Assembly (NCBI GenBank): GCA_026874595.1
Contig: CM049310.1
Location: 41,421,558 to 41,485,557 of the forward strand
Length of the DNA stretch: 64,000 nt
Direction: 5' to 3'
Source of the DNA: Sipunculus nudus
Taxonomy: Eukaryota; Annelida; Sipuncula; Golfingiida; Sipunculidae
The translations under genes were made by a program, and so were the position numbers. Below, in pieces: positions 13,400 to 59,168 of the stretch. The notes below the pieces were generated by a model, which saw only the letters and a list, made by a program, of their open reading frames with translations, had not been told where the DNA came from and did not search any database. Within the stretch, counting starts at the first letter, position 1; the number at the start of each line of letters is the position of its first letter.

Positions 13400-14398
13400 T
13401 GTTACGGGACCTAATATAAACAGATCACGCATGCGTGATGAACACAAATTCTGTCAAGGATATAAAAAAATCCGATTCTGTAACATTTTAGGGAATGAAT
13501 AAAGAAGTCAGTGTTTTTTTGTTAACAAATAACTAGAATTTATTCCTCAAACAACCCTAACATTACAATACACTGAATCAATACAGTTAAACAGCGGTAT
13601 AACAACAAATCAATACAATCACACAGTAAGACAAACAATGTGCACAGTACCTGGATACCACCACCGTCACAACGATAAGTTCTTTAAAGGTATACTCTCG
13701 GAGAATGACAGTCCAGTGTAAAGCTCTTGTAACAATCCAGAAAGTAAACCTTAGGCAGGCAGCACCAAACTGTAAAGTGTGAGTAATGGCAGAATCCCTG
13801 AAATCACTGGATAATCGGACAGGTCCCACACGTCTACGTCCGCTTGAATATTCTTTCTGCTGCTCTCTCTCTCTCTCGGCTCCAAAACACAGCCCCTTTA
13901 CATAACTAATCACCTCAAGCCGAGAAGCTTATATTTCTAGAACATTCGAAGAACTTACATAATACACAGTAAATTTTCCACTTCTCGAACAGTCTAAAGG
14001 ATCTAACACAATACACAGCAAACACGCATTACAGGAATCATCTAGAAAATCTTCGCTGTGTCTCTATACATCAGGTTTCACACCTGATCTCGCGACCCGG
14101 CTCACGGCCAGGTGAGAAAGCCCCAAGCCAGCACAACGTCGAGAGTTCAACCAGTACAGACCCAGCTGAGAATGTAACAAGCGGCCCGGCGAGGGCGCTA
14201 CAACATGAGTTACGCCCGTGTCACACATAAAGGAGCACCTATAACACTCTCCCAAGTATTTAACTTTAAAACTTGTAGGTATTTTCGAGGATACTTCAGA
14301 GCGGATCCAGGGGGAGGGTCCATGGGGTCCGTGCTGCAATACTGCTGAGATTCTGTAGGGTCGCTCCGCAATGTGTCACTAAATTTGTAACTCCATCA
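13400..14398 (-). mobile_element. solo LTR, Gmr1-like family (diverged copy)
   Basis: On the minus strand this matches the LTRs of the element at 22348-31266. It shares the terminal '...tattaggtcccgtaaca', 'cactgacttctttattcattccc', 'gtgacggtggtggtatccag' and the U3 part with 'gtgtgaaacctgatgtatagagacacagcg'. No internal coding sequence follows on either side, so I read it as a solo LTR. The low boundary TGTTACGG is firm; the high boundary near 14398 is approximate and no clear target duplication is seen. Confidence 0.75.
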
Positions 14399-18500: not shown

Positions 18501-19335
18501 CAATGAATATATGTAACTTGGAAGGCAATTATACGCCAATGCTTTGGATATAGAGTTATAAAGCCATATATGTCCATGTGTATGAGTCATGAGTGATTAT
18601 TTTTGGACCTCCATTTGGATCATCAGGCATTTCAACTGTACACTGTAAAAGAAAAAAATATATTTAACATAACATAAAAAAAGTCTTAAATCAATTCATC
18701 ATTAAGCATTCTCATATCCTCTTATATAAATAAACAGTACAAAATAGCAGCACACTAGAAACAATAGAAATAAGTAAACAAATACATATTAAATGAATCC
18801 ACACCTTTTTAAAATACGTATTATCATTTAAAAAATATAGGTCTACTACAGTCAGTACAAGTTTTCAAAATTGTTTTATTGACATTTTTAAGTTACATAC
18901 AAAGAAGCAATGTACAATAAAGACATGCTGACGGTGCAATTTTACAATACAGGTAATATAGTAAAATAAGTACATACGTGGCTCAACTAATTTTACAACA
19001 TGTTTAAAAATAAATAGATCGCAACTAATGTCATTCAATTTACATAATATAAATGCAATAATCTTCTGGAATATAGTGATCTGAATCTTTATAAATATGG
19101 TATCTGTTTTCAATTTTCGGCAGGTTTAAATTTATTTTCTTTGTCCTCTGTGCTATACTATACTCGTTATGTATTTCCATCTATTTTTGAACTGCTCGAA
19201 TAGTTTTCTGTGCATCTCTGCCATGATGAATGGTTGACTGATCCACTTATTTTCCCGAGTAGACCGTATGATAAGATACAAATTTCTCGAACAAAACATT
19301 CACATACAGATGTGTAACTAACACCTAATCAACAG
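15531..19335. other. AT-rich intergenic DNA; one possible exon at 17120-17235 (-)
   Basis: Mostly without signal. On the minus strand, an ATG at 17235-17233 opens a frame MDRSERLPQFTDGHTDRCQ that reaches 'aaatgtcag|gtaata', a good donor near 17123. It might be a first exon, but no partner exon or family is recognisable. A tract of related phrases ('accttagccatttt', 'acctcagccat') near 18220-18325 is a short degenerate repeat. The rest holds A/T homopolymers. Confidence 0.3.
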
Positions 19336-20873
19336 CGTATGATATCTACAAGAACGTATGATATCTACAAGAACGTATGATATCTACAAGAACGTATGAT
19401 ATCTACAACATCAGCATATAGGTTATCTTCATCAACGTTAAAAAGCTGCAACAGCGCAGGATATCTAAAACAGAGTATGATACCTAAAACAACGTTGGAT
19501 ATCTATAACAAATAACTTATGACTAGTACATCAACGTACGATATCTACATCAACGTAGGAAATCTATGGCAACATATGATACCCATATGTTCGCAGGATA
19601 TCTACATCAACGCGGGATATCTACAACAACGCAGGATATATACAACAACTTAGGATATCTACATCAATGTAGGATACATATATCAACATAGGAAATCTGC
19701 AACAACGCATGATATCTGAAACAACATAGGATATCTAAATAAACGTAGGATATCTACAACAACGAAGGAAACCTACAACAACGTAGGATATCTATATCAA
19801 CATATTATATCTTCATCAACGTAGAAAATTTACAATAACGTATGATATCTGCAAAAGAGTAGAAAATCTAAATCAATGTATGATATCTACATCAACGAAG
19901 GAATTCTACAACAACGTATGATATCTGCTACAGCGTAGGATACCTAAAACAGCATATACTATCTACATCTAATTAGGAAATCTACAATAACAAATGCTTT
20001 CTCCAAGAACGTATGACATCGTAGGATATCGACATCAATGTATGATATCGACATCAATGTATGTTATGCACAACAACGATGACAGTATATCTGCAACATC
20101 GTAGGAAATCTACATCAACGTATAGTGTCTACATCAACGTAGCTTATCAACATCAACAATGGATATGTACATCAACATAAAAACCTACCATAACGTAGTA
20201 TATCTACATCAACGTAGGATATCTACATCAACGTAGGATATCTACATCAACGTAGGATATCTACATCAACGTAGGATATCTACATCAACGTAGGATATCT
20301 ACATCAACGTAGGATATCTACATCAACGTAGGATATCTACATCAACGTAGGATATCTACATCAACGTAGGATATCAACAGAAACGTTGGATATCTACATC
20401 AACGTAGTATATTAACAGAAACGTTGGATATTTACATCAACGTAGTATATCAACATCAACAAAGGATATGTATATCAACTTAAAAACCCACAACAACGTA
20501 GCATATTACCGTCAACATAGGATATCTACATCCACGTAGTATATCAACAGCAACGTAGAATATGTACATCAACGTAAAAAATCATACAACATAGGAAGTC
20601 TATACCAACGTAGGAAATCTTCAACCACGTATGATAACTACATCAACGTAGGAAATCTATAAAAAATGTAGGAAATCTAGTATTATACATCAACGTAACA
20701 TATATACATCAAGGTAGGATATTTACACCAACAAAAACACCTAAAACAACGTATGGTACTTAAATAAACGTAGGGTATCAACAACGTAGTATATCTATGT
20801 TAACGTAGGATATCTACATCAACGTAGATACATCAACGTATGATATCTACAACAACTTAGTATATCTACATTG
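19336..20873. repeat. 19-bp minisatellite array
   Basis: The unit is gtaggatatctacatcaac. From about 20211 to 20372 some eight or nine copies are identical. On both sides the copies carry substitutions ('gtatgatatctacaagaac', 'gcaggatatctacaacaac') and small length changes. The total is about 1.5 kb. The array ends just at the terminus of an LTR-like segment (20874). There is no spacer/repeat alternation, so this is a satellite. Confidence 0.97.
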
Positions 20874-22343: not shown

Positions 22344-22347
22344 ATAT

Positions 22348-23234
22348 TGTTACAGATGTCTCTTTTATTGTATGCAGCAGTCTTACATGTGTATGTGCAG
22401 CGCTGGTGTTGTCCGTTGCTATGCCGGCATAGCCCGGCCAACGCGTGGGGTCTGACGCGTAAACACAGCGGTCATGATAGTCTTGGGCTTTCTCGCCTGG
22501 CCGAGCTGGGCCGGCCCACGTGTGAACCCTGATATGTAGAAACACAGCGTTCGTTGTTCTAGATGTTTCCTGTAACGTGGGTATTATGGGTTCTTTAGAC
22601 TGTGCGGGAAATGGAAATTTCTCGGCTTTAGGTGAAAAGTTATAAAATGAGTGGCTGTTTTTGGAGCCGGGACAGAGGAGAGATATATTCCAGCGGAGAC
22701 AGAAGAGGGTAAGTCAGTTTGTGGACCTTTTCCGATAAGTGCGGCAGTTATAGATTTTATATTATTATATATATTATTATACTAATTACATAGTGTTCAG
22801 TTTGCTTTCGGGATTTTAATAAGAACTTCACTTTTGGATTACAACAAATTGATTTTGTGATTGAACTGGTCTGTTATTCTCTGGAAAGATTTGTGTGAAC
22901 TGTTCATCTGGATTATATGCTTTAAACGACTTGTTGCCGCTGTGACAGTGGCGGTATCCAAGTACTGTACACTTAATTTATATACTTGTATTGATTTACT
23001 GTTGTATTGTTGTTATACTGTATAAATGTATTGATTTAGTGTATTCTAATGTTAGGATTGGTTTAAGAATAAATTATAATTATTTGTTAAAAAAAAAAAC
23101 ACTGACTTCTTTATTCATTCCCCTAGACATTTCACGCTGCCTAATGTTACATAATCTGATTTTTCTCCATAACTCCATTACAAAATTTATGTTCGTCACG
23201 ACTACGTAATCTGTTGATATTAGGTTCCGTTACA
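22348..23234 (+). repeat. 5' LTR of the Gmr1-like element
   Basis: The 887-bp LTR starts TGTTACAG and ends GTTACA. It matches 30548-31266 over its last ~700 bp, including 'gcccacgtgtgaaccctgatatg', 'ttctctggaaagattt', 'gctgtgacagtgg' and 'cactgacttctttatt'. A TATA-like 'gttataaaa' lies near 22640 and a possible polyadenylation signal 'gaataaatt' near 23068. It is followed six bases later by the primer binding site. Confidence 0.9.
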
Positions 23235-23240
23235 TAAAAT

Positions 23241-23258
23241 TGGGGACTCGTCCGGGAT
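23241..23258 (+). promoter_or_regulatory. primer binding site, tRNA-Pro type
   Basis: The sequence tggggactcgtccgggat follows the 5' LTR by six bases. It matches the well-known proline-tRNA primer site of several retroelements with one difference. Confidence 0.75.
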
Positions 23259-23401
23259 GCTTAATAGTTTTGAAAATTTATTAGGCCTTGATCTAGAAAC
23301 ATTGTTTACAATACATTGTTAACAAGATTACATATTGTCTACAATACACTGTTTACATGATTTATAACAGTTGTTCTTTGTTATTGTTTTAACATCTTAA
23401 C

Positions 23402-24545
23402 ATGGCAGATTTCAAACCTAAGACATTTGTTGAAGATCGCGACCCTGATCAACTGGTCGACAAAACTGGTTCATAAAAGATCAGTTATTGTGTTTGGGAG
23501 AATACCTAGGGCTAGGTGTGAAAAAAGCTTTGAGAAAGCCTTATATCATTGCTAAAATCATGCAGGATCTAGTTAGCAAAGGTAAAATTGAACAGAGTGA
23601 AATGGAAACATAAAATATAACAGCCTTGCTATTTGCAGTTGGAAATAAAAAAAAGTAGCAATGCAACATGAGCTAGCATTAAAGCAGTTAGAATTAAAAA
23701 AATAAAAGAAAAAGAATTTGAGTTTAAACGGCTGGAGTTAGAAAGGCTCAAACTAGAACGTAGACTAAGTGCTTCGCCTACTCACAGTTTTGATGTTACT
23801 AAATAGATGAGACTTGTCCTCCCTTTTCAAGAAAAAGATGTTGATAAATATTTCTAACATTTTGAGAAGGTAGCTAAAAATTTAAAATGGCCTAAGGAAA
23901 ATTGGACTATGCCATTACAAAGTGTATTGTCTGGCAAGGCCAGAGAAATTTATACAGAGCTTTCAGTAGAAGCCGCTGCTGACTATGACCAGGTTAAACG
24001 GTTAATCCTAAAAGGTTACGAGTTAGTTCCGGAGGCATACCGTTAGAAATTCAGAAATTTGGGAAAAGCGCAAAGAATAGACCTATGTCGAATTTGCTAG
24101 GACAATAGATCAGTTGCTTGATCGCTGGTGTAGTTCTAAAATGTAATGAAAGATTATGACAATTTGCGCTGCATTAACGCAGATTTTAAAACTTTTCTTG
24201 ATGAGAAAAGTCCTGAAACATTTGACATTGCTGCTCAATTAGCTTATAATTATTCATGAACACACAAAATACCCTTTACTGGCAAATCAAACCAGCCATT
24301 CACAAACAAGAATGTTAATCAGTATGGTCCAAAGAATTTTACAGCGCAGTCACCCAGTACTAGTAGTCCTAATAGTTCAGCAAAGTCCATTGCTACACCT
24401 CAGTCTACGTCCACTGTGTCTGAATCCAACCAAGGCCAGTCATTTTCAAAGAAAATCTGTAATCCTTCATAAAGGAAGGTCATCCTAAATTTGACTGCTT
24501 GAAACTTGCAAGTAAACCTAAGGGTAAACCTTCTGGTTTTGTTTA
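23402..24545 (+). pseudogene. gag of the Gmr1-like element, broken
   Basis: ATG at 23402 opens MADFKPKTFVEDRDPDQLVD and soon hits a stop. Later pieces appear in other frames: LGLGVKKALRKPYIIAKIM; a Lys/Glu-rich helix (about 23660-23770); FQEKDVDKYF and LKWPKENWT; SVLSGKAREIYTEL; and DEKSPETFDIAAQLAY. A Ser/Thr/Pro-rich tail follows. The order matches the gag helix-rich capsid typical of the group. The knuckle region near 24460 keeps only a GHPKFDC remnant. At least five frameshifts or stops are present. Confidence 0.75.
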
Positions 24546-24612
24546 AAATCTATGCATAGCATAGTACAAGAGCCATGCTCTTTTCATGTAAATAAGGAGT
24601 AAAACTCCTTTA

Positions 24613-25372
24613 TTGACTCTAATAAAGAGTTTGATGCTACGGAGGCCAACGTGCCGTCTGATTAAAAAAAAATCCGTAGCTTGCTGGGTAAAAACCTCAG
24701 TTGATTCCTGCGAGGAATGTAATAAGGCTAGGTCCATTCAAGGCTCCTGCGAGGAGTATCCTATAAATAAGGCTAAGTCCTTTTATGACTCTTCTGAGAG
24801 TAGAAGGTCCTCTTATAACGTAGAGAAGTTTGTTTCTGCTGAGGCAAATTCCTGTATCGACTCCCATGAGGAGTTTGATTGTAATAAGGATTTAGATTCC
24901 TTTAATGACTCTGAAAAAGAGTGTATGACCGATACTATCAGTGTCGGTTCTTTGTTTGATGAAACTGAGGTAGTAGATTCCTCTCCTGACTCTGAAATTG
25001 ATTTATTTGAGCCATTCATACATGATGGTTTTGCATGGTGACACTGGTACAGGCCAAACTCTCATGTTTGCAAACACTTTGCCATTTTCTTATAGGTCTT
25101 TTACTGGTGCACATGCACTTGTTAATGGTATGTTTTCAGACAAGCACACTATAGTTCCGCTTCACAGTATACATTTAAACTCAGATTTGATTTCTGGGAA
25201 TATTGCTGTGGGCATAATTACTATTTTACTCTTTATGGGAATTCAGTTGCTGCCAGGCAATGATGTTGCAGGTTACAAAGTAAAGCCTGTACCAGTAGTG
25301 ACAGAAAAGCCGTCACTTGATCAGGACACTGATCCTGAAAGTCAGCAAACTAGATCTTTGGCCTGTTACTAG
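24613..25372 (+). pseudogene. linker and aspartic protease of the Gmr1-like element
   Basis: A long Ser/Asp/Glu-rich linker is open to 25041, ending FEPFIHDGFAW. After a frameshift, the protease continues from about 25030 with GDTGTGQTLMFANTLPF, where DTG is the catalytic triad. It runs on through VPLHSIHLNSDLISGN and ends with the family motif LLPGNDVAGYKV. The usual DTGAS active-site loop is DTGTG here. Stop at 25372. Confidence 0.8.
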
Positions 25373-25439
25373 ATCTATGGCCCAGATAAACACACATGAG
25401 GATAATGGTCCAGATAATAACACTCTAGGTGTCACTGAT

Positions 25440-26190
25440 GCAACATTTTCAAGGTCAGAACTTAGCACAATAGCAGAATAGCATAAGGACCCTGATATTT
25501 CATGTTTGTTTCCCAGGGCAGTTTCTAAAGATGAACTGTCACAGAACCCAGTTTGTTTCTATGTTAAAATGGAGTGCTCATGAGTAAATGGCGACCACCT
25601 GATGCATGCGCTGATGATGAGTGGGCCATCGAACATTATATAGTAATGCCCAAAAGCTTTCGCAATAAAATTCTAAGCATGGCACATGAGGCTCCTTTGT
25701 CTGGCCATTTAGGTATAAATAAAACTTATCAGAAAGTTGGCACACCTCAGGACAGATGTTGTACAATATTGTAAATCATGACACACATGCCAGATGGTAG
25801 GCAAGCCCAATCAGAATCTTCCTAAGGCCCCACTTAGGTTTATTTCTGCTTTCGAGGAACTATTTATTAGGAATATTGTTGATTGTGTTGGACTGCTGTC
25901 AAAAACAAAATCTGTACATGAATACTTGCTGACAATTATGTGCGCATCTACCAGGTTCCCTGAGGCAATACCATTGCGCAAAATTAATGCCAAAAGTGTT
26001 GTCAAGGCTCTGACCAAGTTTTTTTTACAACTTTTGGATTACCAAAATCTGTCCAGTCTGACCAAGGGTCTAATTTTATGTCTGGCTTAATCCATCAAGT
26101 TATGCTTGAGCTAGGTATAAAACAGTACAGCTCTTCGCCATACCATCCTGAAAGTCAGGGTGCCTCGAGCGTTTTCACCAGACAGTAAAC
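25440..26190 (+). pseudogene. integrase of the Gmr1-like element, first part
   Basis: Pieces in order are KDPDISCLFPRAVSKDE, NGVLMSKWRPPDAC and IVMPKSFRNKILSMAHEAP, followed by the zinc-binding His pair (H in MAHE and in GHLG). The Cys pair (YCK and HTCQMVGKPNQ) has one codon turned into a stop. The catalytic core follows: first Asp in VDCVG, LLTIMCASTRFPEAIPL, second Asp in SDQGSNF, and Glu in LERFHQ after YHPESQGA. Frameshifts occur near 25770, 26040 and 26160. The frame is cut at about 26190-26212 by a repeat-rich insertion and resumes at 28503. Its position upstream of RT is the striking feature. Confidence 0.85.
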
Positions 26191-26212
26191 AAGTGACCCA
26201 TTGGTCATGATG

Positions 26213-28498
26213 CTCAGCCGACTGCATGTTGACAATAATTCCTTGCATAGGGAACTAATTAAGATAATGTAGGTGGCACCATCATTCATGCAAGTTAGCT
26301 TAAGTTCATTAAGACGCATAAGCACACCCAATAAGACAATCCTTTCAGCAATTCCTGAGGAATCTCCCAATTTGTATGTATTTTGCATTATTTTTAGGAT
26401 GCTCAGACATGCCGCATTAGTTGGAAAAATGAGTTATAAACACCTATAATTTCAAGTTTTTTTCAAGGAGACATCTTATGGACCTCCCTGGATGTCAAAT
26501 GTGAATTCTAGGTCCAATATTTATGATTTGTGCCCTGCTTTTGTTTTAAACTTTTAATTGTTTTGAGGGCACTTTTGTGCGCCATAGCTCAAATGGTATT
26601 GGTAAGAGAGACCTAATTTCAGATTTTCTTGGAGACTTTTCATGAATCTTCCAGGATGTCAAGTTGAAAGGTTCTATGAGACTTTTCATGGGCCTCCCTG
26701 CATGTCAAGATACTAGATTCTAGGTCAAGTCATTACAATATATGCCCTGTTAACAGATGACCACATCTTAAAAAGCCAAAAACAACGAAAAAAAAAATCT
26801 TTAAAAAATATTCGGGTGGCACCACCAGTCTGCAGACTGATGAAACATTCAATGAAAAATATATACATGCAAAGAATGCATTAGCTGTTGAGATACTAGT
26901 GCTTTTGTATCAATTTTTCCATAACTCTGGGGGGTACTTCGAAGCAACATAGCTGAGAGGTTTTGGGTAACAGAGACCTAATTTTACGTTTCCTTAGAGA
27001 CGTTTCATGGGCCTCCCTGCATATCATGGAAGAAGATTGTAGTCCAGCTGTTACGATTTGTGCCCTGTTAACAGATGACCACATGTTTAAATGTATCAAT
27101 AAAATAGAGAAAAAAATGTTTGAAATAAAAAAAATTGCAGGTGGCGCCTCCAGTCCACAGGAACTAATTAAACACTCCACGATCAATATCCATGCAAAGA
27201 ATCATGGTGATCAATGTATAAGTTGATCAGATATATGAGCTTTTCTATCAAATTTTCAATTATTCTTGGTGGTACTTCAGAGCGGCATAGCCGGAAAAAT
27301 ATGGGTAACAGAGACCTTATTATAGGTTTCCAAAGAAATTTTAATGAACCTCTCTGGATATTAAGCTAAAAGATTCTAGGTCCAGCGGTTACAATGTGTG
27401 CCCTGTTAACAGATGACCGCATCTTTAAAGGTATCAAAAATACAGAAAGAACATAGAAAAATTTAAAAAAAGTTGCAGGTGGTGCCACCAGTTCAAAGAA
27501 ACTCATTAAACACTCCATGATCAATATCCATACAAATGATCATGGTGATCAATGTATTAGTTGTTCAAATACTTGAGCTTTTGTTTAAATTTTTTCATTA
27601 TTCTGGGGGGGGGGGGGGGGGGGGGGGGGAATTAAGAGCCCCATGGCTGAAAGAATATGGGTAACAGAGACCTAATATCAGGTTTCCAAGAAGATTTTTC
27701 ATGGACCTCTCTGAATGTCAAGTAAAAAGATTATAGGTCTAACGGTTACGATTCTTGCCCTGTTAACAGATGACCACATCTTTAAATGTCTCAACAAGAG
27801 AGAGAGAGAGAGAGAAAACAAAAATGAATAAAAATAAAAAAATTGCAGGTAGCGCCACCAGACCGCAGAGTCTCATTAAACACTCCACGATCAATATCCA
27901 GGCAAAGAATCATGATGATCAATGTATTAATTGTTTAGATACTACAGCTTTTGTATCAGACTTTTCATTATTCTGGGGGGTACTTCGGAGCGCAATAGCT
28001 GGAAAAATATGGGCAACAGAGACTATATTATAGGTTTCCAAAGAAATTTTTCATGGTCCTCACTGGATATTAAGCTGAAAGATTTTAGGTCCAGCGGTTA
28101 CAATGTGTGCCCTGTTAACAGATGACCGCGTCATTAAAGGTATCAAAAATACAGAAAAAAAATTCGAAAAAGATACAGGTTGCGCGACCAGTCCGCTGAA
28201 ACTGATTAAACACTCCATGATAAATATCCATGCAAAAATCATGATGATCAATCAATTAGTTGTTCAAATACTTGAGCTTTTGTATCAATTTTTTTTATTA
28301 TTCTGGGGGGGGGGGGGTTACTTTGGAGCACTATGGCTGGAAGAATATGGATAAACAGAGACCTAATTTCAGGTTTCCAAGAAGATTTTCCATGGACCTC
28401 TCTGGATGTCAAGTGGGAAGATTCTAGGTATAGAGGTTACAATTTGTGACGGACAAAGAGTAATTGCTAAAGCTCAGATGACTTACAGTCAGCTGAGC
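26213..28498. mobile_element. insertion of ~340-bp repeat units within integrase, with short inverted ends
   Basis: The block starts near CTCAGCCGACTG and ends with CAGTCAGCTGAG, its near-perfect reverse complement, directly before integrase resumes. Inside, the phrase 'ccctgttaacagatgacc' recurs near 26746, 27064, 27400, 27757 and 28108 (steps of about 318-358 bp). Each unit also holds a GGTGGCGCCACC-like core and 'attctgggggg' that expands to long G runs (27605-27629, 28304-28317). The coding value is nil. The inverted ends suggest one non-autonomous element carrying an internal tandem array. Confidence 0.7.
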
Positions 28499-28502
28499 TA
28501 AA

Positions 28503-29045
28503 AACATGATTGGGACTTATTGTTATGACACCCAGAAAGACTGGGAAGAAGAAATCCACCTATTGCTGATTGCTGTCAGAGAATCATTTCAAGAGTCCTT
28601 GGGTTTCAGTCCATTTGAACTAGTTATTGGACACTCAGTTCGCGGTCCATTACAACTGCTTAAAGGAAAACTCTTGTGTGAAAATCCTGATTCTCTTAGT
28701 TTGTTACAGTATGTCTCAGCCTTTCGCACTAAACTTTACAATGGTTGTGAGATTGCAAAGTCAAATCTAAAATCTGTACACAAAGTTAAATGAAAACAAA
28801 GTATGACAAGTACACTGTAAGTGGGACGTTTGAGCCTGATGAAAAGGTCCTTGCCTTACTTCCCATCCCTTGCAGACCTCTGCAAGCTAGGTATTTTGGT
28901 CCTAACACTATTTAGATGAAAGTAAGTGATTTATATTACATACTGTTGACACCAGATGGGCGTAAGATGAAACAACTGTGCCATGTTAACATGTTGAAAC
29001 CATATTATGACAGAAATAGCACATCACATGCTGTACATAATGGTT
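28503..29045 (+). pseudogene. integrase of the Gmr1-like element, C-terminal part with GPY/F-like module
   Basis: This resumes integrase after the insertion. MIGTYCYDTQKDWEEEIHLLL, then VRESFQESLGFSPFELV, then GHSVRGPLQLLK is the region downstream of the catalytic Glu. From about 28800 comes the module YTVSGTFEPDEKVLALLP, PLQARYFGP (the GPY/F position), SDLYYILLTPDGRK and CHVNMLKPYYDR. This typically ends a Ty3/gypsy integrase, yet RT follows it here. Confidence 0.85.
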
Positions 29046-29080
29046 AAAGTAGATACTGATTGTAAGTGTGATGTAGACAT

Positions 29081-29975
29081 TCAGTGTGGTACAGTACCAC
29101 TAAAAAACTCAGACATGCTTAACAACCTTGATGCCAAACTGTCACACCTTACCGCACAACAACAACAAGGCCTCAAGAACCTGCTGCGAATTTTGTAAAT
29201 TTGTTTATTGACATTCCAACGCGAACTTACATATTGTGCCATGACGTCGATGCACGCGAGGCAAGCGCAGTCAAGCAGCATCCTTATAGACTGAATCCAG
29301 GAAAGCAAAAATATCTACAGGATGAGGTTTAATATTTGCTGGACAATGATTTTATTGAACCTAGTAACAGTAACTGGAGTTCACCATGTATTCTTGTGCC
29401 ATAACCTGATGGAATTTACCGTATGTGCACAGATTATCGAAAACTGAGCTCTGTCACCAAGACCGACACGTTCCCGATTCCGAGGCTCGATGCTTGTATT
29501 GATAGAGTCGGTAGCTGCAGATATGTCTCCAAGTTTGACTTGCTAAAAAGATTCTGGCAAGTTCCGCTGACAGAACGAGCAAAAGAAGTGTCCGCATTTG
29601 TGACGCCGCAAGGACTGTATCAGTATAAAGTTTGGCATGAAAAACTCGCCAGCCACGTTCCAGCGCCACATCCATATGGTTGTCAAAGACATTCAGGGAT
29701 GCGACGCATATATATTGATGACCTTATCGTGTACAGCGACACCTCGGAGAAACATCTGCAAGTTCTTTGAAAGACTCAGTGAAGCACGTCTGACCATCAA
29801 CTTAGTTAAATCTGAGTTTTGTCATACACAAGTAACATTTTTGGGTCATATTTTAGGGCAGGGTCAAGTTAAACCTGTTGATGCTAAAATAAGTGCTACT
29901 TCTGCATTTCCTGGACCAGAAAACAAAAAGCAAATAATGCGTTTTCTTGGTATGGTTGGATATTAAAGGAAGTTT
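29081..29975 (+). pseudogene. reverse transcriptase of the Gmr1-like element
   Basis: Starts LKNSDMLNNLDAKLSHLT. Then come KQHPYRLNPGKQ, FIEPSNSNWSSPCILVP, RMCTDYRKLSSVTK and FPIPRLDACIDRVG. FDLLKRFWQVPLTERA holds the first catalytic Asp; the active-site loop IDDLIVYSD has YIDD, near 29710-29735. It continues with FCHTQVTFLGHILGQGQVKP and FLGMVGY, in frames that shift near 29640 and 29770. Several stops break it. Confidence 0.88.
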
Positions 29976-30501
29976 TGTCCAAATTTGTTTCAGCTGTAGC
30001 TGGACCTTTGACTATTTTGCTAAAGAAGAAACAAAAGTTTGTATGGAATGTTCAGTGTGAAAATGCATTTCAGGATTTGAATGCAATTCTGCAAAGTTCA
30101 CCAGTTTTGGTAGCTCCAGACTTTTCTGTACCTTTTAAGATAGCCGTAGATGCTAGTGATACTGCTGCTGCTGTGTTGTTAAAGAAGGCAGTGATGGCAT
30201 ATATCATCAAATTTGTTATTTTACAAGAAAGTTTAATACAAACCAGAAAAACTACACCACTATTGAAAAGGAATGTTTGGGTTTTATTCTGACATTGCAA
30301 CATTTTGAAGTTTATGTTACTTCATTCGTCAAGCCTATCATTGCCTTCAGCGATCACAATCCCCTTATATTCATTTACAAGTTGAAATATAAACATCAAA
30401 TATTGTCGAGATCGAGTTTGTTTTTACAGGATTACAACCTTGAAATCAGACACATTAAAGGGAAAGACAAGGTACTTGCTGATTGCTTATCGAGATGTTG
30501 A
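29976..30501 (+). pseudogene. RNase H of the Gmr1-like element
   Basis: FVWNVQCENAFQDLNAIL and SPVLVAPDFSVPFKI lead to the catalytic VDASDTAAAVLL. Then LTLQHFEVYVTSFVKPII, SDHNPLIFIYKLKYKH and the typical end NLEIRHIKGKDKVLADCLSR. One frameshift near 30195-30290. No coding sequence follows before the LTR. Confidence 0.88.
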
Positions 30502-30547
30502 TGTAATGTTGTAAATAAGATGTTTTTGAGGATTTAGTGATTCTAGT

Positions 30548-31266
30548 CGCCGGGACGGCCCACGTGTGAACCCTGATATGTAGAAACATAGCGTTCGTTG
30601 TTCTAGATGTTTCCTGTAACGTGTGTATTATGGGTTCTTTAGATTGTTCGGGAAATGGAAAGTTATCGGCTTGAGGTGAAAAGTTATAAATATGGGGCTG
30701 TGTTTTGGAGCCAGGAGAGAGAAGAGATATATTCCAGCAGACACAGGAGAGAGTAATTCAGTTTGTGGACTTTTTAAGTGCGGCAGTTATAGATTTTCTT
30801 CTAGATTTGTGATGGATCTTATATAGTCTTCAGTTTGCTTTCGGGATTATAACAAGAATTCACTTTTAGATCATAACAATTGATTTTTTGATTTGAACTG
30901 GACTGTTATTCTCTGGAAAGATTTATGTGAACTTTTCATCTGGTTTATATGCTTTAGAGGACTTGTTGTCGCTGTGACAGTGGTGGTATCCAGGTACCGT
31001 ACACTTTATTTATATACTTGTTTTGGATTACTGTTGTATTGTTGTTATAATGTGTATTTGTATTAATTTAGTGTTTTGTAATGTTAGGATTGTTTAAAAA
31101 ATAAATAATTATTATTTATTTATTAAAAAAAAAACACTGACTTCTTTATTTATTCCCCTAGACATTTCACGCTGCCTAGTGATACAGAATCTGTTTTTTA
31201 ATCTCCATTACAAAAAAAAATTGTTTGTCACGACTATGTGATATGTTGATATTAGGTTCCGTAACA
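30548..31266 (+). repeat. 3' LTR of the Gmr1-like element, 5'-truncated
   Basis: Matches 22510-23234 of the 5' LTR but lacks its first ~160 bp. The polypurine tract expected just before the LTR is also absent, so one deletion probably removed both. It ends GTAACA followed by the target duplication ATAT. Confidence 0.88.
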
Positions 31267-31270
31267 ATAT

Positions 31271-34894: not shown

Positions 34895-35164
34895 TCAGAA
34901 GTTCAGGAGTTGCATTTGAGAGTACTGAAGATGGCGTTGTGCGCCCGTCTGTATAATTGGCTGAGGGCCGAATAGAGCGGGGTACCGGTCTACAGTTTTT
35001 CTTTCTTTAGAAAAGAGCAAAACGGATCTCAAAACGAGGCTCTGTGTTGCCCCGGTATCCCTTATGATTTTCATTCGAACCTTCCTTGAAAAGTTTCCCT
35101 CCAACTCAACAAAACCGTCTGACACAAGGGCTGAAACTTTTTTCGACAGAGTTTTGTTTATCAC
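34895..35164 (-). pseudogene. aspartic protease, element A
   Basis: Open frame with SDGFVELEGNFSRKVRMKI, then IRDTGATQSLVLRSVLLFS. DTGA is the catalytic triad region of a retropepsin. Downstream the similarity fades after KERKT. It follows the CCHC region on the same strand. Confidence 0.78.
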
Positions 35165-36170
35165 CTGTAGTCTCTACATTACTTGGCATTTTTACCGGTT
35201 TCACGCTCTGCGTTGCAGTTGACGCATTAGCCTTACTCTGCTTTTCTCTTTCTTAAAGCATTCAGATTCTATATGCCCCTTGCAATTCATTCCACAGAAT
35301 CTACAAATCTTAATTAATTTGATTCAGTCCTAAGTGACCACTCTAAATTTTGAGCAGGAGAGTCAGAATGACTTTTAAACTTGGACCTTCTTTTATCGGA
35401 CCATTGTTTATTTGAGCCGGAAGAACCCCAGGTAGGAGGGAGTACCTTTTCTCCGACCAATCCTTGGACCTCAACAAACCTCTCTTTTTGACCAAACTTT
35501 ATCCTGTACCTTAGGCGGTGTGACAAGGCAACTTATCCGCCATGACACCAGCCTTACTTACATACTCTGTCTTATGCTCATTCAAAAACATTCTGATCTC
35601 ATGATGGATATGTCTTTTAAATTCTTCAAACAGAATCAAGTTTCAGTTTCTCAAAATCATTGCCAACCTTCATAGACTGACACCAAGCGGATAAATAAAT
35701 TTTCTTTATCTCTAACACATTCTACATGCATTTGATTCTCTCTCCTAACAGTGTGTCTAAATTACTGTGGATAAGCCTCGGGCACTAATTTATAAGCCCT
35801 CAATATGGCTTCCTTCACAATACATACATTGTTCGTCAGAGAGGGCGGGATTATAATCTTGAGCCGTCCTACTAAGAATCCCTGTTAAAAAGGGGTCCAT
35901 TTTTCTATAGGCCAAGCCATTAAAGAGGCCACATGCTCAAAATGATTGAAGTCACGCTCCACTTCATTTTCATTGAAGGGAGGAACCTTCATCGAATTTC
36001 TAAACAAGAATTCAGAGTTATCATTTACTCTAGGAGTTTGACGGTTTCGTTGTTCTAGCTCTTTCAATCTAATTTAGGTTTCTTGTTCATTCAGTTTAAT
36101 TTCTCTTTCAATTTCACACCTACGTCTTTCGCAACAATATATATATTTACGTATGTCTACTATTGGGCCC
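35165..36170 (-). pseudogene. gag of element A
   Basis: Minus strand: a charged helix (CEIEREIKLNEQE, LKELEQRNRQT) precedes MKVPPFNENEVERDFNHF and MAWPIEKWTPF, which match the capsid start seen in the Gmr1-like gag (FQEKDVDKYF, LKWPKENWT). Further on, GQKERFVEVQGLVGEK and a damaged zinc knuckle (ICRFCGMNCKGHIESECF, two residues too long) lie near 35240-35310. Stops are frequent between 35880 and 35530. The element was probably related to the Gmr1-like one. Confidence 0.75.
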
Positions 36171-36270: not shown

Positions 36271-36745
36271 CGGCTCCGAAAATACCACTTTCATAACATT
36301 ATCGTGTAATATCAGGTCATGAATTACATTTTACTTATGAAATGCCTTGGTTGTCTTGGTTGCTTTGCCTCATACTGATTTTCAGTCGAGAGCCGGTTTT
36401 CTATTGTTTTGTATTGTTTTCATTCGGACAAACACATCGACCGAATCGTACCCTGCCAAGCCTCAGTCTCAAGGCACCGAGAACTGATCAGTGTTAATGT
36501 TGTGCTTGGCAGGAAAGGACTGAACTTATTGAACTCTTAAACCCTAACATTTAACCAATTCGGCACTTTTAGTTTTCAGTTTCAGTATATCGTGTAAAGC
36601 TTTTGTATTCCATATTCCATTTGTAACTCTACTGGGTAATTTTCATTTGTTGTACACGCATGACTATTTGTATTTATTGCATGTAATACGCAATGGTATC
36701 TTCATGTGTTTTTTCATGTATACATTACCGAGTGATATGTTTTCT
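36270..36745 (+). repeat. 5' LTR of element C, partial
   Basis: Matches 43093-43585 ('aataccac', 'atatcaggtcatgaatt', 'accctgccaagcctcagtct', 'ttcatgtgttttttcatgta'). The first ~100 bp are replaced by a microsatellite, and homology stops after 'accgagtgata'. Confidence 0.8.
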
Positions 36746-37439
36746 TGTCTTCCATATCGCCAGTGGATAATAAAATTAATTAATTGGGTGTCTGTGCACA
36801 ACACCATTACACATGACCAGAGTGGACTTTTCGTGGACTCTTTATGACACTGGTTCCGTGTTCCCCCTTCGCTTCGCTTTAGTGCCTTGCACTGTAAACG
36901 CTGCCTTGCCATTGTTCTACGCTCGTGGGTTCTTCGTTTGTTTTCCTGGACTCCGTGCACGGAGACTTCGTCTGAAGGGCCCTGGCGAACGTCACTCTCC
37001 TTGGAGAAGATACACATTTTCTATGACTGCATGCACTTTTCTTCTTATATTTGTTATTGTCCATGGAATTTGTGCTTAAATAATCATATATTATGATGTG
37101 TAAGGTATTATTGCACTGTTTTGAATTTTAAGTGATCAATGATCATTGATCATTGTTCTGACTGTAAAATGTTTTCACAGTTTAGTATTGGTAAATTGAA
37201 CTGCATGTAAAGGGTATAAGCAGTTGTTCCGGTTTGAAGTTACCATGTTCAGTCACGTGTTCTATTGTCATTAGGCCTCGTGGTCACGGTAATGTAAACA
37301 ATGGCAAAGCAACTAAACACTGACATTTGCCATTAATATAACTTGCTGACTACATGAACCTGCTAATAATTTACCATCGTAGGACGACTTAAGACAATTT
37401 ACATAATTATTTCTGTTTGTTATTGTCTTCAGAGACCAC
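36746..37439. other. 5' untranslated part of element C, unassigned
   Basis: Does not match the rest of the 3' LTR. The segment 36840-37080 is more GC-rich. A short direct tandem repeat 'gatcaatgatcattgatcattg' lies near 37135. No primer site was recognised. Confidence 0.4.
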
Positions 37440-38710
37440 ATTCCATCCCATCTATTTGCAATAAATCAGTTGACATAACACGGGTCGTCTCCAAGCATGG
37501 GCTACCTCCTGATGTTAACGGATCTGAGAGTATTGTGCAGTTCTCGCAAATTGAAACCCCCACGCGTTTTATTTTTTGTTAAGGAAGCACATTCTGGTCG
37601 TTGCACTGGCCGTGGTTTTGTAGTTTTGGAATCTAAAGACTCCGCCAAACAGGCCATAGATAAGGGTTGCTCTTTACAAAAGGATTCAAATATCAAAATC
37701 TTTCTTGAGCATGCTTAGGTTTCCTCCATAACTGAGGTGTCACATCTGATTCTTAACAAAATGCTCGATTCGTTAAATCCTTCTTCCCTTCAGGTATCCG
37801 AGGGTAAACGTGTCTCAGAGATAGTAACAAAGCTCGATTTTCTTTCAGATTTCGAGGTAAATCAGATGACTTTAAACACAGAAGGGGTGATGCAATTCAG
37901 GTGCCATCTTGGGCTACTGGTTACAGTATAATATCTCCAAAGCTTCCTTTTCAGGTAATCACGAAAAAACTGGTAGCTACGAACAATGGCGCTCCCATCT
38001 CAAATCTATGATGAAAGCTGGCGTAACACCAAATTCTCAGATATTGTCAGCAATTCACCAGTCTGTTAGGGGAACAGCAGGTAATGTTCTATTACATATG
38101 CCTGATGAATCCACTCCTACAGATATACTGAATAAATTTGACAGGTACTTTGGTAATGTGCTCCCCACAGAGGTACTTATACAGCAGTTCCACTCTCACA
38201 AACAAGATGCCAAAGAGGATTTAAATTACTGGAGCTGCAGACTTAATAGACAGTTAGACCTCATTATCCAAAGAAATCCTGTTCCTCATAGGGAATATGA
38301 GCAAATGCTTCGCTCTAGGTTCTCGAATGGACTGTATTCCATATATATATCAAAGAAGCCTTGCGTCATAGGTATGATAATGGGGAAGAACAAGATGATA
38401 TGTCTGCAGCCGCCCATGCTTTAGAGTCCGAAGTTGCACATAGTTCACAGGTGAAGGTTGCATCGTCCAATCACATTTCTCAACAAGGGGTTAAATCTTT
38501 GTCTTTTGAGAGCTTTGTGCTGGAGCAGATAAATAACTGTCTACCCTGGAGAATCGCATATCAACACTTGAATCGTCTCAGCCGTCCAAAACAAATTGAC
38601 CATCACATGCGCAGGTTGACGTTCGTAAAAGTAATACTTTCTCGGACGAAATTGTCTGCTCTCGTTGCCATCGTAACACACATACTGTTAAGAAATGTAA
38701 TGCTGAACGA
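37440..38710 (+). pseudogene. gag of element C (RRM-like N-terminus, capsid, CCHC knuckle)
   Basis: The N-terminal part shifts frame: VVSKHGLPPDVNGSES, then HSGRCTGRGFVVLESKDSAK, with the G-x-G-F-V core of an RRM-like fold. Capsid from about 37935: FSGNHEKTGSYEQWRSHLK, SVRGTAGNVLLHMPDE, FGNVLPTEVLIQQFHS and a C-terminal RFSNGLYS. Knuckle CSRCHRNTHTVKKC (C-x2-C-x4-H-x4-C) near 38657-38698. The layout recalls PNMA-type capsids. Frameshifts near 37560, 38370 and 38600. Confidence 0.78.
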
Positions 38711-38763
38711 ATCAAATACGGTAAAATCCTAAAAAAAAAGTAAGAGTCACCCGTGTCCAGTCT

Positions 38764-39215
38764 TTGGAGGCCACGGGTTCAGATAATACGATTCCCACAA
38801 CAAATGTATGTACCCAGAATGTCCCTCTCGTAGGTGAAGCTCAGGTTGTTGACATGACTGCAGATGGTATTAACTCCAATGGTCTTTTAGATACAGGTTC
38901 CCAAGTCTCTACTGTCGCTGAGTGGTCTTATGAAAATCACCTAAACCCGTCAGACTTAGTCCCCGTGGAAGAGATGATGGATCTCCGGCAACTAGACGGC
39001 TAGAAGGTAGAGTATTGTGGTATCGTTCCTGTTGACTTAGTTTTCTTATATACTTGCTCAAACATTTTCTGTGCCAGTATTGGTGATGTAAAATACACAT
39101 TTCAATCCAATGTTCCATTTTTAATTGGAACAAACCTGCTAAACTCATGTTTATATTTTCTACGGACAAATGCTGGTCGAAATTTAATTCAGAGTTTACA
39201 CATGTCAGAACCATA
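38764..39215 (+). pseudogene. aspartic protease of element C
   Basis: LVGEAQVVDMTADGINSNG leads to LLDTGSQVSTVAEW, the catalytic DTGS loop. After a stop at 39001 the same frame goes on through VPVDLVF to VPFLIGTNLLNSC, the C-terminal IGTN motif. Confidence 0.82.
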
Positions 39216-39380
39216 GAAGATTGCTACTAAATGTATGAAAAAGGGAACAGAAAACACTAAATAAATGTACGTGGTCATGTTTTATCCACTAAGTCTACAG
39301 TAGTACCTGCTCAAAGTGATATCACTATAAATGGTTTAACTAGAGGTTGTAAAACAGGCAAAACGCTTGTTATAACTGAT

Positions 39381-40490
39381 GTGAATGTACTTAACAGGTT
39401 GCCAACCGGATTGATTCTTCTTCCGTGTGTCAAAGAACTTTATTTGTCCATAGGTACAAGTCACAGAAATTCAGTACAGGTAAGAAACATAACAACACAT
39501 TCCATCACTATTCAAGCAAAAAGAATTGTCTGTAACATACAGGAAGCTACCTTCGTAAACCAATTTACACCATCTTCTGAACCATTTGATCATAAATTCT
39601 TAAGCATGTTCAAGTTCGGTCAAGATTTGTCACAATCTGAATCTAACCTACAGCAGCAACTGTTGCTTAAATGGAAACATATATTTTCCTTAAGTAATAC
39701 AGATCTTCGACATACCAGTGTAGAAAAACACCGTAATGTGTTAACTAACAACGAACCATTTAGGGGGCGATATCGTATCCCTCCACAATTATATGATGAG
39801 GTAAAACAACATCTGAGAGAGATGCTTGAGTCAAAAGTAATAAAGAGGAGCAGAAGTCCGTTTGCGAGTCAAGTGGTCCATGTCAGAAAAAGTGACGGGA
39901 CTCCTCGGTTCTGTATTGATCATAGATCCCTTAATAGCAGAACTGTCAGAGACACTCATTCCTTGCTAAGAATCGATGACACCTTAGATTCTTTAATTGG
40001 CGCTCGTTACTTTTCCTCTCTAGATTTGAAGTCCGGTTACCGGCAGGTTGAGTTGGCAGATGAAGATAAAGACAAAACAGCATTTACATTAGGTCCCCTC
40101 GGTGTTTATCAATGGGAAACCATGCCGTTCGGTTTGGTGAACGCGCCAGCCTCATTCTAAAGATTAAGGCAAAAGACCATACAAAAGAATGTCTGCTCTA
40201 TCTTGACGACATAATCGTATTCTCTGCCACCTTTGAAGAACACCTCATTCGCTTGAATAACATCTTTCCTCGTCTTAATGATGCAGGCTTAAAACTTAAA
40301 TCATAAAAAAGCCAGCTAATGCAAAACAAAAATAAATACCTAGGACACAGTCTCAAAAGAAGGTAAACAAACTGACCGGAGTAAAATAAATGCCCTCAAA
40401 GAATGGCCTGTACCTAAATGTGTCAGTGATGTACGCCGTTTCTTAGGCTTTGCGAGTTTCTTTCTTAGATTTGTCCTGGATTTACAAACA
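39381..40490 (+). pseudogene. reverse transcriptase of element C
   Basis: Open for 259 codons. Motifs: GRYRIPPQLYDEVKQHL, SPFASQVVHVRKSDGTPRF, CIDHRSLNSRTV, FSSLDLKSGYRQVELA (first catalytic Asp), METMPF-like WETMPFGLVNAPASF. A deletion shifts the frame at 40157, and the YLDD loop follows in CLLYLDDIIVFSATFEEH. Then KYLGHSL and FLRFLGFA-like remnants after stops. Confidence 0.9.
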
Positions 40491-40900
40491 ATTGCGAAAC
40501 CATTACATGACTTACTGAAAGGTTACCATATTCAGAATAAAAAAACAAAAAAAAACAAAACAAAAAAAACAGCAATCGTATCAAAAAGAAAATTCCATCC
40601 CAACCAAACTTTATCTGGTCACAACAACATCAACTAGCATTTGATCAATTAATAGGACTGCTATCTTCTGCTCCTGTACTAGCGTTTGCAGATATCTCAC
40701 ACAGATGCAAGTTTTGATGGGATCTCTGGTATCTATTATAACAACCCTCTAACATGCATCATGTCCTCTGCCAAATTAGACGCAACGGGTCAAAGATCGG
40801 TATCGGATTTGGCTAATTACGACTTCAACAGTCAATATAAAGCCGGCAAACACAACATCGATGCCGATGCACTTTCAAGAATATCTCGAATGCCCGCTGA
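40491..40900 (+). pseudogene. RNase H of element C, badly damaged
   Basis: FIWSQQHQLAFDQLIGLLS and SAPVLAFAD are readable around 40605-40692. TDASFDGISG carries the catalytic Asp. An internal deletion removes the middle. The end ANYDFNSQYKAGKHNIDAD and ALSR is intact. An A-rich low-complexity insertion lies at 40537-40575. Confidence 0.8.
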
Positions 40901-42280
40901 AAAGCGGAACCAAAACCATCACTGTATTACCAATGACGTTGTAAAAGCTGTTTGTCAATCAGTGACAATACCATCACCTGTAATATGTAGTCTTACTTGT
41001 GACCAGTCCAATGCTGTTCCATCAAGTGATCCTATCGATATCCTTGGACAAACACGATTAGACTTATCTAAAGAACAAATTCTGGATTCGACTCTGAAAC
41101 CATTCATTTTGTATTTCAGAGACAATAATGTCATAAACAAGAAAGACTTGACTCATCCTGATCTAATAATTCTTTTCAGACGAATAGATAGTCTTGTGCT
41201 ACGAGATGACATACTTTATCGTAAACGTACACTGAATGGCAAAATTCAATGTCAAATGGTTATACCTAGGAGTCTACGTAAAGTTGCTTTATCTGGTATT
41301 CATGACGATGTTGGGCATCTGGGTCGTTATCGGTCTCTCCATCTTGCCCATGACCGATTTTGCTAGCCGAAAATATATAAAGACATAGATTAATACATTA
41401 AAAATTGTCCTCGTTGTATAAGGCGGAAGTCCCCTCCAGGAAAGGCTCCTTTGGTGCCGAAAAAATTCCACACAACCAATGAAACTCTTATGTGTTGATT
41501 ATAATCATAATCTATTTTAGCCTGTGCCATCTAAAGGTGGAGTTGAAAACATTCTGGTCATGACCGATAATTTCACCCGCTACGCTATGGCAGTTCCTTG
41601 TCGCAATACCACGGCAAAAAAACACAGCTTAATTACTCGTTGACACCATCGTTCAACACTATGGCTTCCAGCCCGCATAATCATCAAGAACTATGCAGAC
41701 TAGCAGGTATCCATAAATCATGATGTACAACGTACAATCCAATGGGGCAAGGGCAAACCGAACGGTTTAACCGTAGTCTAATCAGTAAGTAGGGTACTCT
41801 TGAGGAAGAGAAAAAGAAAAACTGGAAAGAATACGTAAGTGCTCTGACTTATGCCTACAGTTGTACTCAAATGACACAACTGGTTATACTCCTTTCTATT
41901 TAATGTTTGGTAGTCATCCACGCCTCCCTATTGATTTAGTACTTGGAACTAACAACAATCCTAACCATCAAATTACAACACAAATGTTTCCGAACTCAAA
42001 GACCAACTTTCTTCTGCATATGATATTGCTACACAAACGGTTGTATGATAAACGTGCTCGTAATGGGTTGCTTGGTATTGGAGATCACGTCTTAGTACGA
42101 AAGGTAGGGTTAATTGGGAAACAGAACTGACCAATAAATGGGAAGAGCGGATGTATGAGGTATTGGAACAATCCAATGTCGTTTGCCCCTTGGGTAATAA
42201 AAGACGTACTCGTACCTTGCATCGCAATATAATCCTGCAAACCAAATGATACATCATCAGAGTCAGATGAGTCATCGTCA
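40901..42280 (+). pseudogene. integrase of element C
   Basis: LDSTLKPFILYFRDN and ILYRKRTLNGKIQCQMVIP precede the zinc site: His pair in GIHDDVGHLGRYRS and Cys pair in NCPRC-like text near 41402. The core keeps NILVMTDNFTRYAMAVPCRN. The segment with the second Asp is deleted after HYGF (about 41670). NPMGQGQTERFNRSL holds the Glu. The end is TGYTPFYLMFGSHPRLPID, then RARNGLLGIGDHVLVRK. Several stops. Confidence 0.85.
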
Positions 42281-42679: not shown

Positions 42680-42981
42680 CTGCAGTTAAAATAGGCTACC
42701 TTGAGCATAGTTTTCAGCAAGTTCATGTGTTTGCATAGGTTTTAGGTTAAGATCTTTCTGTACGCTTCATATGGCTCGTTCTGCGATTTTGACGGGTCAG
42801 TGATATCTTTTAACTTTAATTTTGCGTATACTGCCACCAGCTTAATTCAGGTATAATTATCAACCCCATTCCTGTTAACATTCCAGTTAAAGCATCCAAC
42901 CTAAGTCCTACTGAGCGCCGTCCACCGCTGTCATGCGAGACCTATAAATCTTTGTAGGTGAAGTGTCGGGGCACCATTGAC

Positions 42982-58289: not shown

Positions 58290-59168
58290 TTTTACGGAAC
58301 CTAATATAAACTGATCACGTAGTCATGACGAACATAAATGTTGTAATGGAGAAAAAAAAAATCAGATTCTGTAACACTTGGCAGCGTGAAATGTGTAGGG
58401 AAATGAATAAAGAAGTCAGTGTTTTTTTGTTTGTTAACAAATAATTATAATTTATTCTTAAAACAATCCTAACGTTACAATACTATAAATCAATACAATT
58501 ACATAGTATAACAACAGTACAACAGTAAATCAATACAAGTACATAAATAAAGTGTGCAGTACCTGGATCCACCACTGTCACAGCGACAACAAGTCCTTTA
58601 TAACGTACAACCCAGATGAACATTTCACATAAATCTTCTCAGAGGATGACAGTCCAGCTCATTCACCAAAATCAATTCGTTGTAATCCAAAAGTAAAGTT
58701 CTTGTTAAAATCCCAAAAACAAACTGAAGGCTATTTACGATCCGTCACGTATTTAGAGGAAAATCTATAACTGCCGCACTTATCGGAAAAGGTCTACAAA
58801 CTGACACACACTTCTGTGTCCACTAGAATTTTTTTCTCCTCTCTATCGGCTCTCAAACACAGCCCCCCTATTTATAACTTCTCACCCCAAGCCGAGAACT
58901 TTCCATTTCCTGAAACATCCAGAGAACCTTACATGATACACAGTACACACGCGTTACAAGAAACATCTAGAACAAGAACGCTGTGTCTCTACATGTCAGG
59001 GTTCACACGTGGACCAGCCCGGCTCGGCCTGGCGAGAAAGCCCGACACTAGCATGACCGCTGTTTACACGTCAGTCCCCATGCGTGGGCCGGGCTATGCC
59101 GCAATAGAATTAACCGAGCGCTGTGTAGAGTTCACATGTAAGAATGCTGCAAACAAAAATTTTAGACA
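58290..59168 (-). mobile_element. solo LTR, Gmr1-like family
   Basis: Matches the 5' LTR (22348-23234) over almost its whole length on the minus strand: 'tgcagcattcttacatgtg', 'ggcatagcccggccc', 'ccacgtgtgaaccctgac', 'ttctctgagaagattt', 'gctgtgacagtgg' and 'cactgacttctttattcattt'. It keeps the first ~160 bp that the 3' LTR at 30548 lacks. No internal sequence adjoins it. Confidence 0.85.

What the first reader, a model, noticed from the sequence alone, without database searches (positions are those of the whole stretch)
22348..31266. Ty3/gypsy element with integrase upstream of RT (Gmr1-like) in a probable protostome
Seen: between two LTRs and on one strand lie gag, a DTG protease, an integrase with HHCC and DDE residues and a GPY/F-like end, then RT (YIDD) and RNase H. 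Known: this copia-like order with gypsy-like domains defines the Gmr1 group, first reported from deuterostomes. Inference: the window appears molluscan, so this would extend the group. Two related solo LTRs show it has been active more than once here.
Basis: partly seen in the sequence, partly recalled or inferred. Interest (0 to 1): 0.75.

Follow-up and report, generated by a model that had tools for sequence, protein, structure and literature searches.

The report
Old jumping gene with swapped parts
This is a dead copy of a virus-like jumping gene (retrotransposon) whose DNA-inserting enzyme sits in front of its copying enzyme instead of behind it, a rare but already described layout that this animal genome carries in very many copies.

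Summary
Window 22348-31266 is one LTR retrotransposon: 887-bp 5' LTR, a site one base off the complement of tRNA-Pro, gag, protease, integrase, then reverse transcriptase and RNase H, a truncated 3' LTR, and a 4-bp target duplication. It is dead: frame breaks, a 2.3-kb tandem-repeat insert inside integrase, LTRs 85% identical. Of 30 related loci examined, 29 have integrase upstream of RT and none the reverse. Two tests support the Gmr1 assignment. (1) In RT trees from this genome, integrase-first and integrase-last lineages are the two sides of one branch (100/99); a lineage of unknown order that fell on the integrase-first side then gave weak integrase hits upstream of RT. (2) Gag carries a SCAN domain, which papers trace to Gmr1-like gag; two further integrase-first lineages match SCAN (one below Pfam's cut-off), two integrase-last ones do not. 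No named Gmr1 sequence was at hand, so direct placement is untested. The claimed novelty fails: Gmr1-like elements are in print from crustaceans (2013) and an annelid (2021). That the host is a mollusc could not be shown. New member of a known kind; the SCAN-gag / integrase-first link is the most interesting part.

The parts
22344..22347 (.). target-site duplication, left copy (ATAT)
22348..23234 (+). 5' LTR, 887 bp, TGTTAC...GTTACA
   Evidence: in seven of seven other genomic LTR loci the similarity begins within 6 bases of this point
23241..23258 (+). primer-binding site TGGGGACTCGTCCGGGAT, one base off the complement of this genome's tRNA-Pro(TGG) with CCA added
   Evidence: ten other copies differ from that complement by 1 to 4 letters
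23858..24040 (+). gag piece upstream of SCAN
   Evidence: found in 12 of 12 SCAN loci
24029..24268 (+). gag SCAN domain, frame broken here
   Evidence: tblastn with ten stop-free SCAN pieces of other copies, 50-53% identity, E 2e-19 to 2e-21
24977..25369 (+). aspartic protease piece with DTG; no Pfam hit
25568..25768 (+). integrase zinc-binding (Integrase_H2C2) piece
25782..26087 (+). integrase core piece holding the first catalytic Asp (by eye)
25988..26185 (+). integrase core (rve) piece, second Asp region
26193..28499 (.). about 2.3-kb foreign insert inside integrase, with 338-bp tandem repeats at 26875-28448
   Evidence: absent at this point in the six copies compared
28497..28790 (+). integrase piece after the core
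   Evidence: 150 of 150 scored genomic candidates match
28790..29041 (+). integrase C-terminal region (GPY/F-like by eye; Integrase_p58_C below cut-off)
29405..29963 (+). Ty3-type reverse transcriptase, two overlapping frames, YIDD
29888..30498 (+). RNase H, two overlapping frames
30549..31266 (+). 3' LTR lacking about its first 157 bp
31267..31270 (.). target-site duplication, right copy (ATAT)
58294..59159 (-). LTR copy of the same family, 82%; no coding piece of the family was found beside it
13400..14123 (-). related LTR copy in three pieces, 73-76%

Best explanation
A decayed copy of an abundant Ty3/gypsy LTR retrotransposon of the Gmr1 kind (protease-integrase-RT-RNase H). Inferred cycle, as in LTR retrotransposons generally: the LTR drives a transcript; SCAN-bearing Gag packages it; tRNA-Pro primes reverse transcription at the site next to the 5' LTR; protease cuts the polyprotein; integrase, encoded ahead of RT, inserts the copy with a 4-bp duplication. 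Shown here: anatomy, order in many copies, a primer site close to the complement of a tRNA-Pro of this genome, 4-bp duplications, LTR-only copies. Not shown: any activity. This copy is dead.
For: Ends, LTRs, target duplication. Domain order by Pfam on pieces. Order in 29 of 30 loci, none reversed. The only PDB matches of the RT piece up to E 0.01 are six polymerase or polyprotein chains, led by 4ol8 (7.7e-20; that it is Ty3 is recalled) and 7q5b, named Ty3 Gag-Pol (4.2e-19). SCAN in gag: 150 of 150 scored candidates over Pfam's cut-off, 2198 first-look candidates; the only PDB hits of one gag piece up to E 1 are 3lhr, Zinc finger protein 24 (0.0088), and 4bhx, PEG3 (0.66) (that both are SCAN structures is recalled). 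RT trees: integrase-first against integrase-last is one branch, 100/99; L057, placed by the tree before its order was known, has SH3_Tf2-1 and Integrase_p58_C hits upstream of RT, both below cut-off. Primer site one base off the tRNA-Pro complement. 4-bp duplications also at L003 and L005.
Against: No named Gmr1 element could be put in the tree. Within-genome RT identities are low (38-47% between the window family and the other lineages), and pairwise identity alone puts the window family nearest to the integrase-last L053 (47%), not to the integrase-first L055 (43%); only the model-based tree and AU tests (p 0.0007 and 6e-12, for groupings named after the first tree was seen) separate them. 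The root is unknown, so one side of a branch is not proven to be a clade. One of 30 loci (L029) shows no RT downstream and a reversed RNase H piece. None of ten other copies has an exact tRNA-Pro primer site; they differ by 1 to 4 letters, several sharing an indel. GPY/F was only read by eye.
Confidence: 0.93

Rival explanations
1. A conventional gypsy element whose parts were scrambled in this copy by nested insertion or rearrangement.
For: The copy does carry a 2.3-kb insert inside integrase, and a gypsy element of conventional order lies 5 kb away at about 36406-43585.
Against: 28 of the 29 other loci examined show the same order, and the insert is absent from the six copies compared; integrase-first lineages L055 and L064 have integrase C-terminus and RT in one stop-free stretch.
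Confidence: 0.02
2. An independent swap of integrase and RT in a gypsy lineage unrelated to Gmr1.
For: No named Gmr1 sequence was compared; the RT is only 38-47% identical to the other lineages in this genome, and nearest by plain identity to an integrase-last one.
Against: The integrase-first lineages found in this genome sit on one side of one branch, and gag carries SCAN, which papers tie to Gmr1-like gag and which two integrase-last gags lack.
Confidence: 0.05
3. A Ty1/copia element.
For: Copia-like domain order.
Against: RT and RNase H match the RVT_1 and RT_RNaseH models, and the closest solved relatives of the RT piece are Ty3.
Confidence: 0.01

Closest known systems
Gmr1 group of Ty3/gypsy elements (Goodwin and Poulter 2002; not read, seen only as cited in PMC6238403 and PMC8220671)
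   Same: Integrase upstream of RT with gypsy-type enzymes; SCAN-like gag; LTR-flanked
   Different: Host outside deuterostomes is likely but not proven; sequence distance to named members not measured
Crustacean Gmr1-like elements GyRex4, Gychoro2, GyMaja1, GyLiva4 (PMC3587641, passages)
   Same: Same clade assignment in a protostome phylum
   Different: GyRex4 was known from RT/RNase H only (the related GyRex5 from integrase only); how much of the others was known I did not see. Here many copies show the order
Annelid LGF3 family of Lamellibrachia luymesi (PMC8220671, passages)
   Same: Gmr1 family in a lophotrochozoan
   Different: Fewer than 25 elements there; 3718 loose integrase candidates here
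Cigr-1 clade of molluscs (PMC6238403, section 6 read, passages elsewhere)
   Same: PMC8220671 cites a Ciona paper as a source of a Gmr1-clade element, so the mollusc Cigr-1 families may be the same kind (my inference)
   Different: The mollusc survey lists no Gmr1 clade and built its trees from RT/RNase H, not from domain order

Membership tests
Gmr1-like Ty3/gypsy | Integrase upstream of RT | tested here: met
   Window; 29 of 30 loci
Gmr1-like Ty3/gypsy | Gypsy-type RT and RNase H | tested here: met
   Pfam models and PDB best hits
Gmr1-like Ty3/gypsy | Gag with SCAN homology (PMC4592553, PMC4131045, passages) | tested here: met
   in the window copy only by tblastn at 24029-24268, since its own broken pieces give no SCAN hit in Pfam
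Gmr1-like Ty3/gypsy | RT/integrase tree groups with named Gmr1 members | not testable with these tools
   No named Gmr1 sequence held; proxy within one genome met
Gmr1-like Ty3/gypsy | GPY/F module at the integrase end | tested here: inconclusive
   FGP motif by eye at 28790-28909; Integrase_p58_C 24.4 bits, cut-off 27
Ty1/copia | Copia-type RT | tested here: not met
Conventional Ty3/gypsy | Integrase downstream of RNase H | tested here: not met
   RNase H frame ends at 30498, LTR sequence resumes at 30549

The most novel reading that the evidence does not exclude
SCAN-type Gag and integrase-first Pol were inherited together from a single ancestor older than the protostome-deuterostome split. 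In this one, probably protostome, genome at least four deep integrase-first lineages form one side of one branch (window family, L055, L064, and L057 on weak hits), the three gags tested match SCAN (one below cut-off), and the two integrase-last gags tested do not. If so, the SCAN domain of vertebrate transcription factors is an ancient capsid domain, and mollusc and annelid clades defined by RT alone hide further Gmr1-order elements.
Probability: 0.5. Interest if true: 0.45.

Novelty: new member of a known kind. Interest (0 to 1): 0.3.

Why it matters
It adds a high-copy family to a little-sampled retrotransposon group and shows that the odd domain order is not a quirk of single copies. The link between order and a SCAN-bearing gag gives a marker for finding the group without reading domain order, and would date the source of the vertebrate SCAN domain if it holds in named protostomes. 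For the claim that the group is new to protostomes it does not matter: that is already in print.

Tried and rejected
Host identity: the mollusc haemocyanin domain PF14830 gave 0 matches (the control genomes also gave none, so this shows little). COX1 search: 11 matches. Nine, on contigs C60-C89, have near-equal scores and open frames of 577-578 aa; the one used as a query (L081) is nearest, at 59%, to a bacterial MAG. C123 reads by eye like a bacterial cbb3-type operon. A 51-aa piece on C5 was not followed. So no mitochondrial gene was found. Muscle myosin exons: the first ranks 3i5f first (196.3 bits; squid, recalled) but Myosin-6 follows at 194.8; the second ranks Myosin-6 first (87.4 against 84.9). 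So the phylum is open. Viral contigs scan for the integrase piece: 10 pattern matches, no relative. The first tRNA pattern asked for a T that the genome's sites do not have and for one base more; it found 0, the corrected one 49. Two of the three fetched tRNA-like sites were not called tRNAs by ARAGORN. SCAN did not show in Pfam for the window's own broken gag pieces. A search for the 338-bp repeat and a C1q count to test for a bivalve did not complete. Structure prediction was not used.

Rows dropped: of 30 RNase H loci, 17 were used in the first tree, 9 left out as near-copies and 4 (L059, L062, L067, L077) for more than 3 stops; of 14 window-family copies tried, 7 kept. Order was tested directly in L053, L055, L056, L058, L060, L064, L072 and L057; L051, L054, L061, L063, L065, L066, L068, L079, L080 carry the label of their close kin, and of these L079 and L080 have 11 and 33 stops after RNase H, so that their own integrase was not seen. 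L068 was not within 80% of L058 and is its sister in the tree. The 30 loci are the best-scoring 30 of 150, not a random draw.
Full report
What is there. The element spans exactly 22348-31266. The 5' LTR is 887 bp (22348-23234) and begins TGTTAC; the 3' LTR ends GTAACA at 31266; both sides are flanked by ATAT. The 3' LTR aligns with LTR positions 158-887 only, at 85.3%. In seven of seven other genomic LTR loci the similarity begins within 6 bases of 22348. Around these, L003 and L005 (the latter with an insert in the LTR) have a matching 4-bp duplication, L002 and L007 match at 3 of 4 bases, and L004, L006 and L008 have damaged or cut ends and were not scored; neither the gag piece nor the RNase H piece searched for was found in any of the seven stretches of about 3.5 kb. 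A primer-binding site follows the LTR at 23241-23258. The genome has 49 sites with the T-arm and acceptor end of the matching tRNA and none for the reversed control; ARAGORN calls one of three fetched a tRNA-Pro(TGG). Against the complement of that tRNA with CCA added, the window's site differs by 1 letter and ten other aligned copies by 1 to 4.

Domain order. Searching stop-to-stop pieces apart, Pfam gives Integrase_H2C2, rve (just under its cut-off), Integrase_p58_C (under its cut-off), RVT_1, RT_RNaseH in that order on one strand. The RNase H frame ends at 30498 and LTR sequence resumes at 30549, so no integrase lies behind RNase H. A search of the genome with the 98-residue integrase piece gave 3718 first-look candidates; 150 were scored and all matched. 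Of the 30 loci cut out (the best-scoring ones, the window's own among them), 29 have RT downstream of integrase on the same strand, most of them also with protease or the zinc-binding piece upstream; L029 has no RT and a reversed RNase H piece; none has RT ahead of integrase. The 2.3-kb insert with 338-bp tandem repeats is absent from the six copies compared at that point.

Gag. The window's gag pieces have no meaningful Pfam hit. But a search of the genome with Pfam's SCAN model gave 2198 first-look candidates, of which 150 of 150 scored pass the curated cut-off (best 57.1 bits; none in 14 control genomes). The eight control genomes that another search names are bacteria and archaea, so that control says little about animals. 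All 12 loci cut out carry this family's gag piece beside SCAN, and 11 of 12 carry protease, zinc-binding or integrase pieces downstream on the same strand. Ten stop-free SCAN pieces match the window at 24029-24268 at 50-53% identity. The only PDB hits of one such piece up to E 1 are 3lhr, Zinc finger protein 24 (0.0088), and 4bhx, PEG3 (0.66). [quoted passage not shown] PMC4131045 (passages) found SCAN in over half of frog Gmr elements only.

Relatives in the same genome. Pfam's RNase H model brought 30 loci of several gypsy lineages. Integrase lies behind RNase H in L053, L056, L058, L060, L072, and the integrase C-terminus lies ahead of RT in L055 and L064. In a tree of 26 RT rows, integrase-first (12 rows) and integrase-last (13 rows) are the two sides of one branch with support 100/99; L057, whose order was then unknown, fell on the integrase-first side. 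Its upstream piece matches SH3_Tf2-1 (3.2e-4) and Integrase_p58_C (0.0015), both below cut-off, as an integrase-first element should. A second tree of 19 rows without the short rows gives the same branch, and AU tests reject joining the window family to L053 (p 0.0007) or L058 (p 6e-12); these groupings were named after the first tree was seen. Against this, plain identity puts the window family nearest to integrase-last L053 (47% against 38-43% for the integrase-first ones), and the root is unknown, so a clade is not proven. Gag pieces of the two further integrase-first lineages match SCAN: L166 at 34.6 bits, over the cut-off, and L167 in two frames at 22.9 and 18.5 bits, under it. They are tied to the pol of L065 and L055 by lying upstream on the same strand; the stretches between, about 0.7 and 1 kb, were not read. 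Gags upstream of two integrase-last lineages (L072, L053) match Retrotrans_gag, one of them below cut-off, and not SCAN. The gypsy element at about 36406-43585 in this window has RT at 39.9-40.2 kb and a zinc-binding hit (below cut-off) at about 41.3 kb, the conventional order.

Age. The two LTRs differ by K2P 0.125, or 0.120 without CpG sites, over 711 and 669 sites; at rates of 1 to 4 x 10^-9 per site and year, which are assumed, that is about 60 to 15 million years. LTR loci elsewhere are 84-88% identical to this one, one short piece 80%. So this is an old insertion, probably from an old burst; nothing here shows current activity.

Known or new. [quoted passage not shown] PMC8220671 places an annelid family in Gmr1. 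PMC8556966 lists Gmr1 among clades present in several phyla, but its own annelid survey did not recover the clade. The mollusc survey PMC6238403 (section 6 read, passages elsewhere) lists 21 gypsy clades without Gmr1, but includes Cigr-1, and PMC8220671 cites a Ciona paper as a source of a Gmr1-clade element. Library searches for Gmr1 with integrase and mollusc (4 papers, all listed), Crassostrea (10 of 16 listed) and gastropod (6 of 7 listed) showed, beyond the papers above, none whose title or abstract start is about such an element. SCAN domain with retrotransposon and mollusc gave no paper. These cover open-licence papers only. The host's phylum could not be settled.

Verdict. A well-supported Gmr1-like family, ordinary in kind, notable for abundance and for the SCAN-gag / integrase-first association.

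Noticed in passing
34898-36073 (-): Relic of a second, distinct family of this kind: gag piece 41% identical (35771-35944), a SCAN-like fragment at 35535-35639 found by 8 of 10 SCAN pieces, and a DTG protease piece by eye; Pfam finds nothing in the SCAN-like and protease pieces.
   Followed up: partly
36406-43585 (+): A conventional-order gypsy element with similar ends (86-92%) and RT before the integrase zinc-binding region.
   Followed up: partly
26875-28448: About 4.6 copies of a 338-bp tandem repeat inserted in the integrase gene; origin unknown.
   Followed up: partly
19314-20562: A 19-bp minisatellite array, two blocks.
   Followed up: no
1104-2177: About four copies of a roughly 277-bp tandem repeat.
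   Followed up: no
45258-45503 and 53920-54165: Direct repeat pair of 246 bp at 97%, 8.7 kb apart, perhaps another LTR pair.
   Followed up: no
G000 contigs C60-C89 and C123: The assembly seems to hold bacterial contigs: COX1 matches of near-equal score on eight contigs (two on one), one of them 59% identical to its nearest relative, an Oligoflexia MAG, hinting at a bacterial associate.
   Followed up: partly
G000:C14:19081324-19319682: A run of tRNA-Pro-like 3' ends, many about 3.65 kb apart, as in a tandem array; the one at 19086938 is called tRNA-Pro(TGG) (L173).
   Followed up: partly
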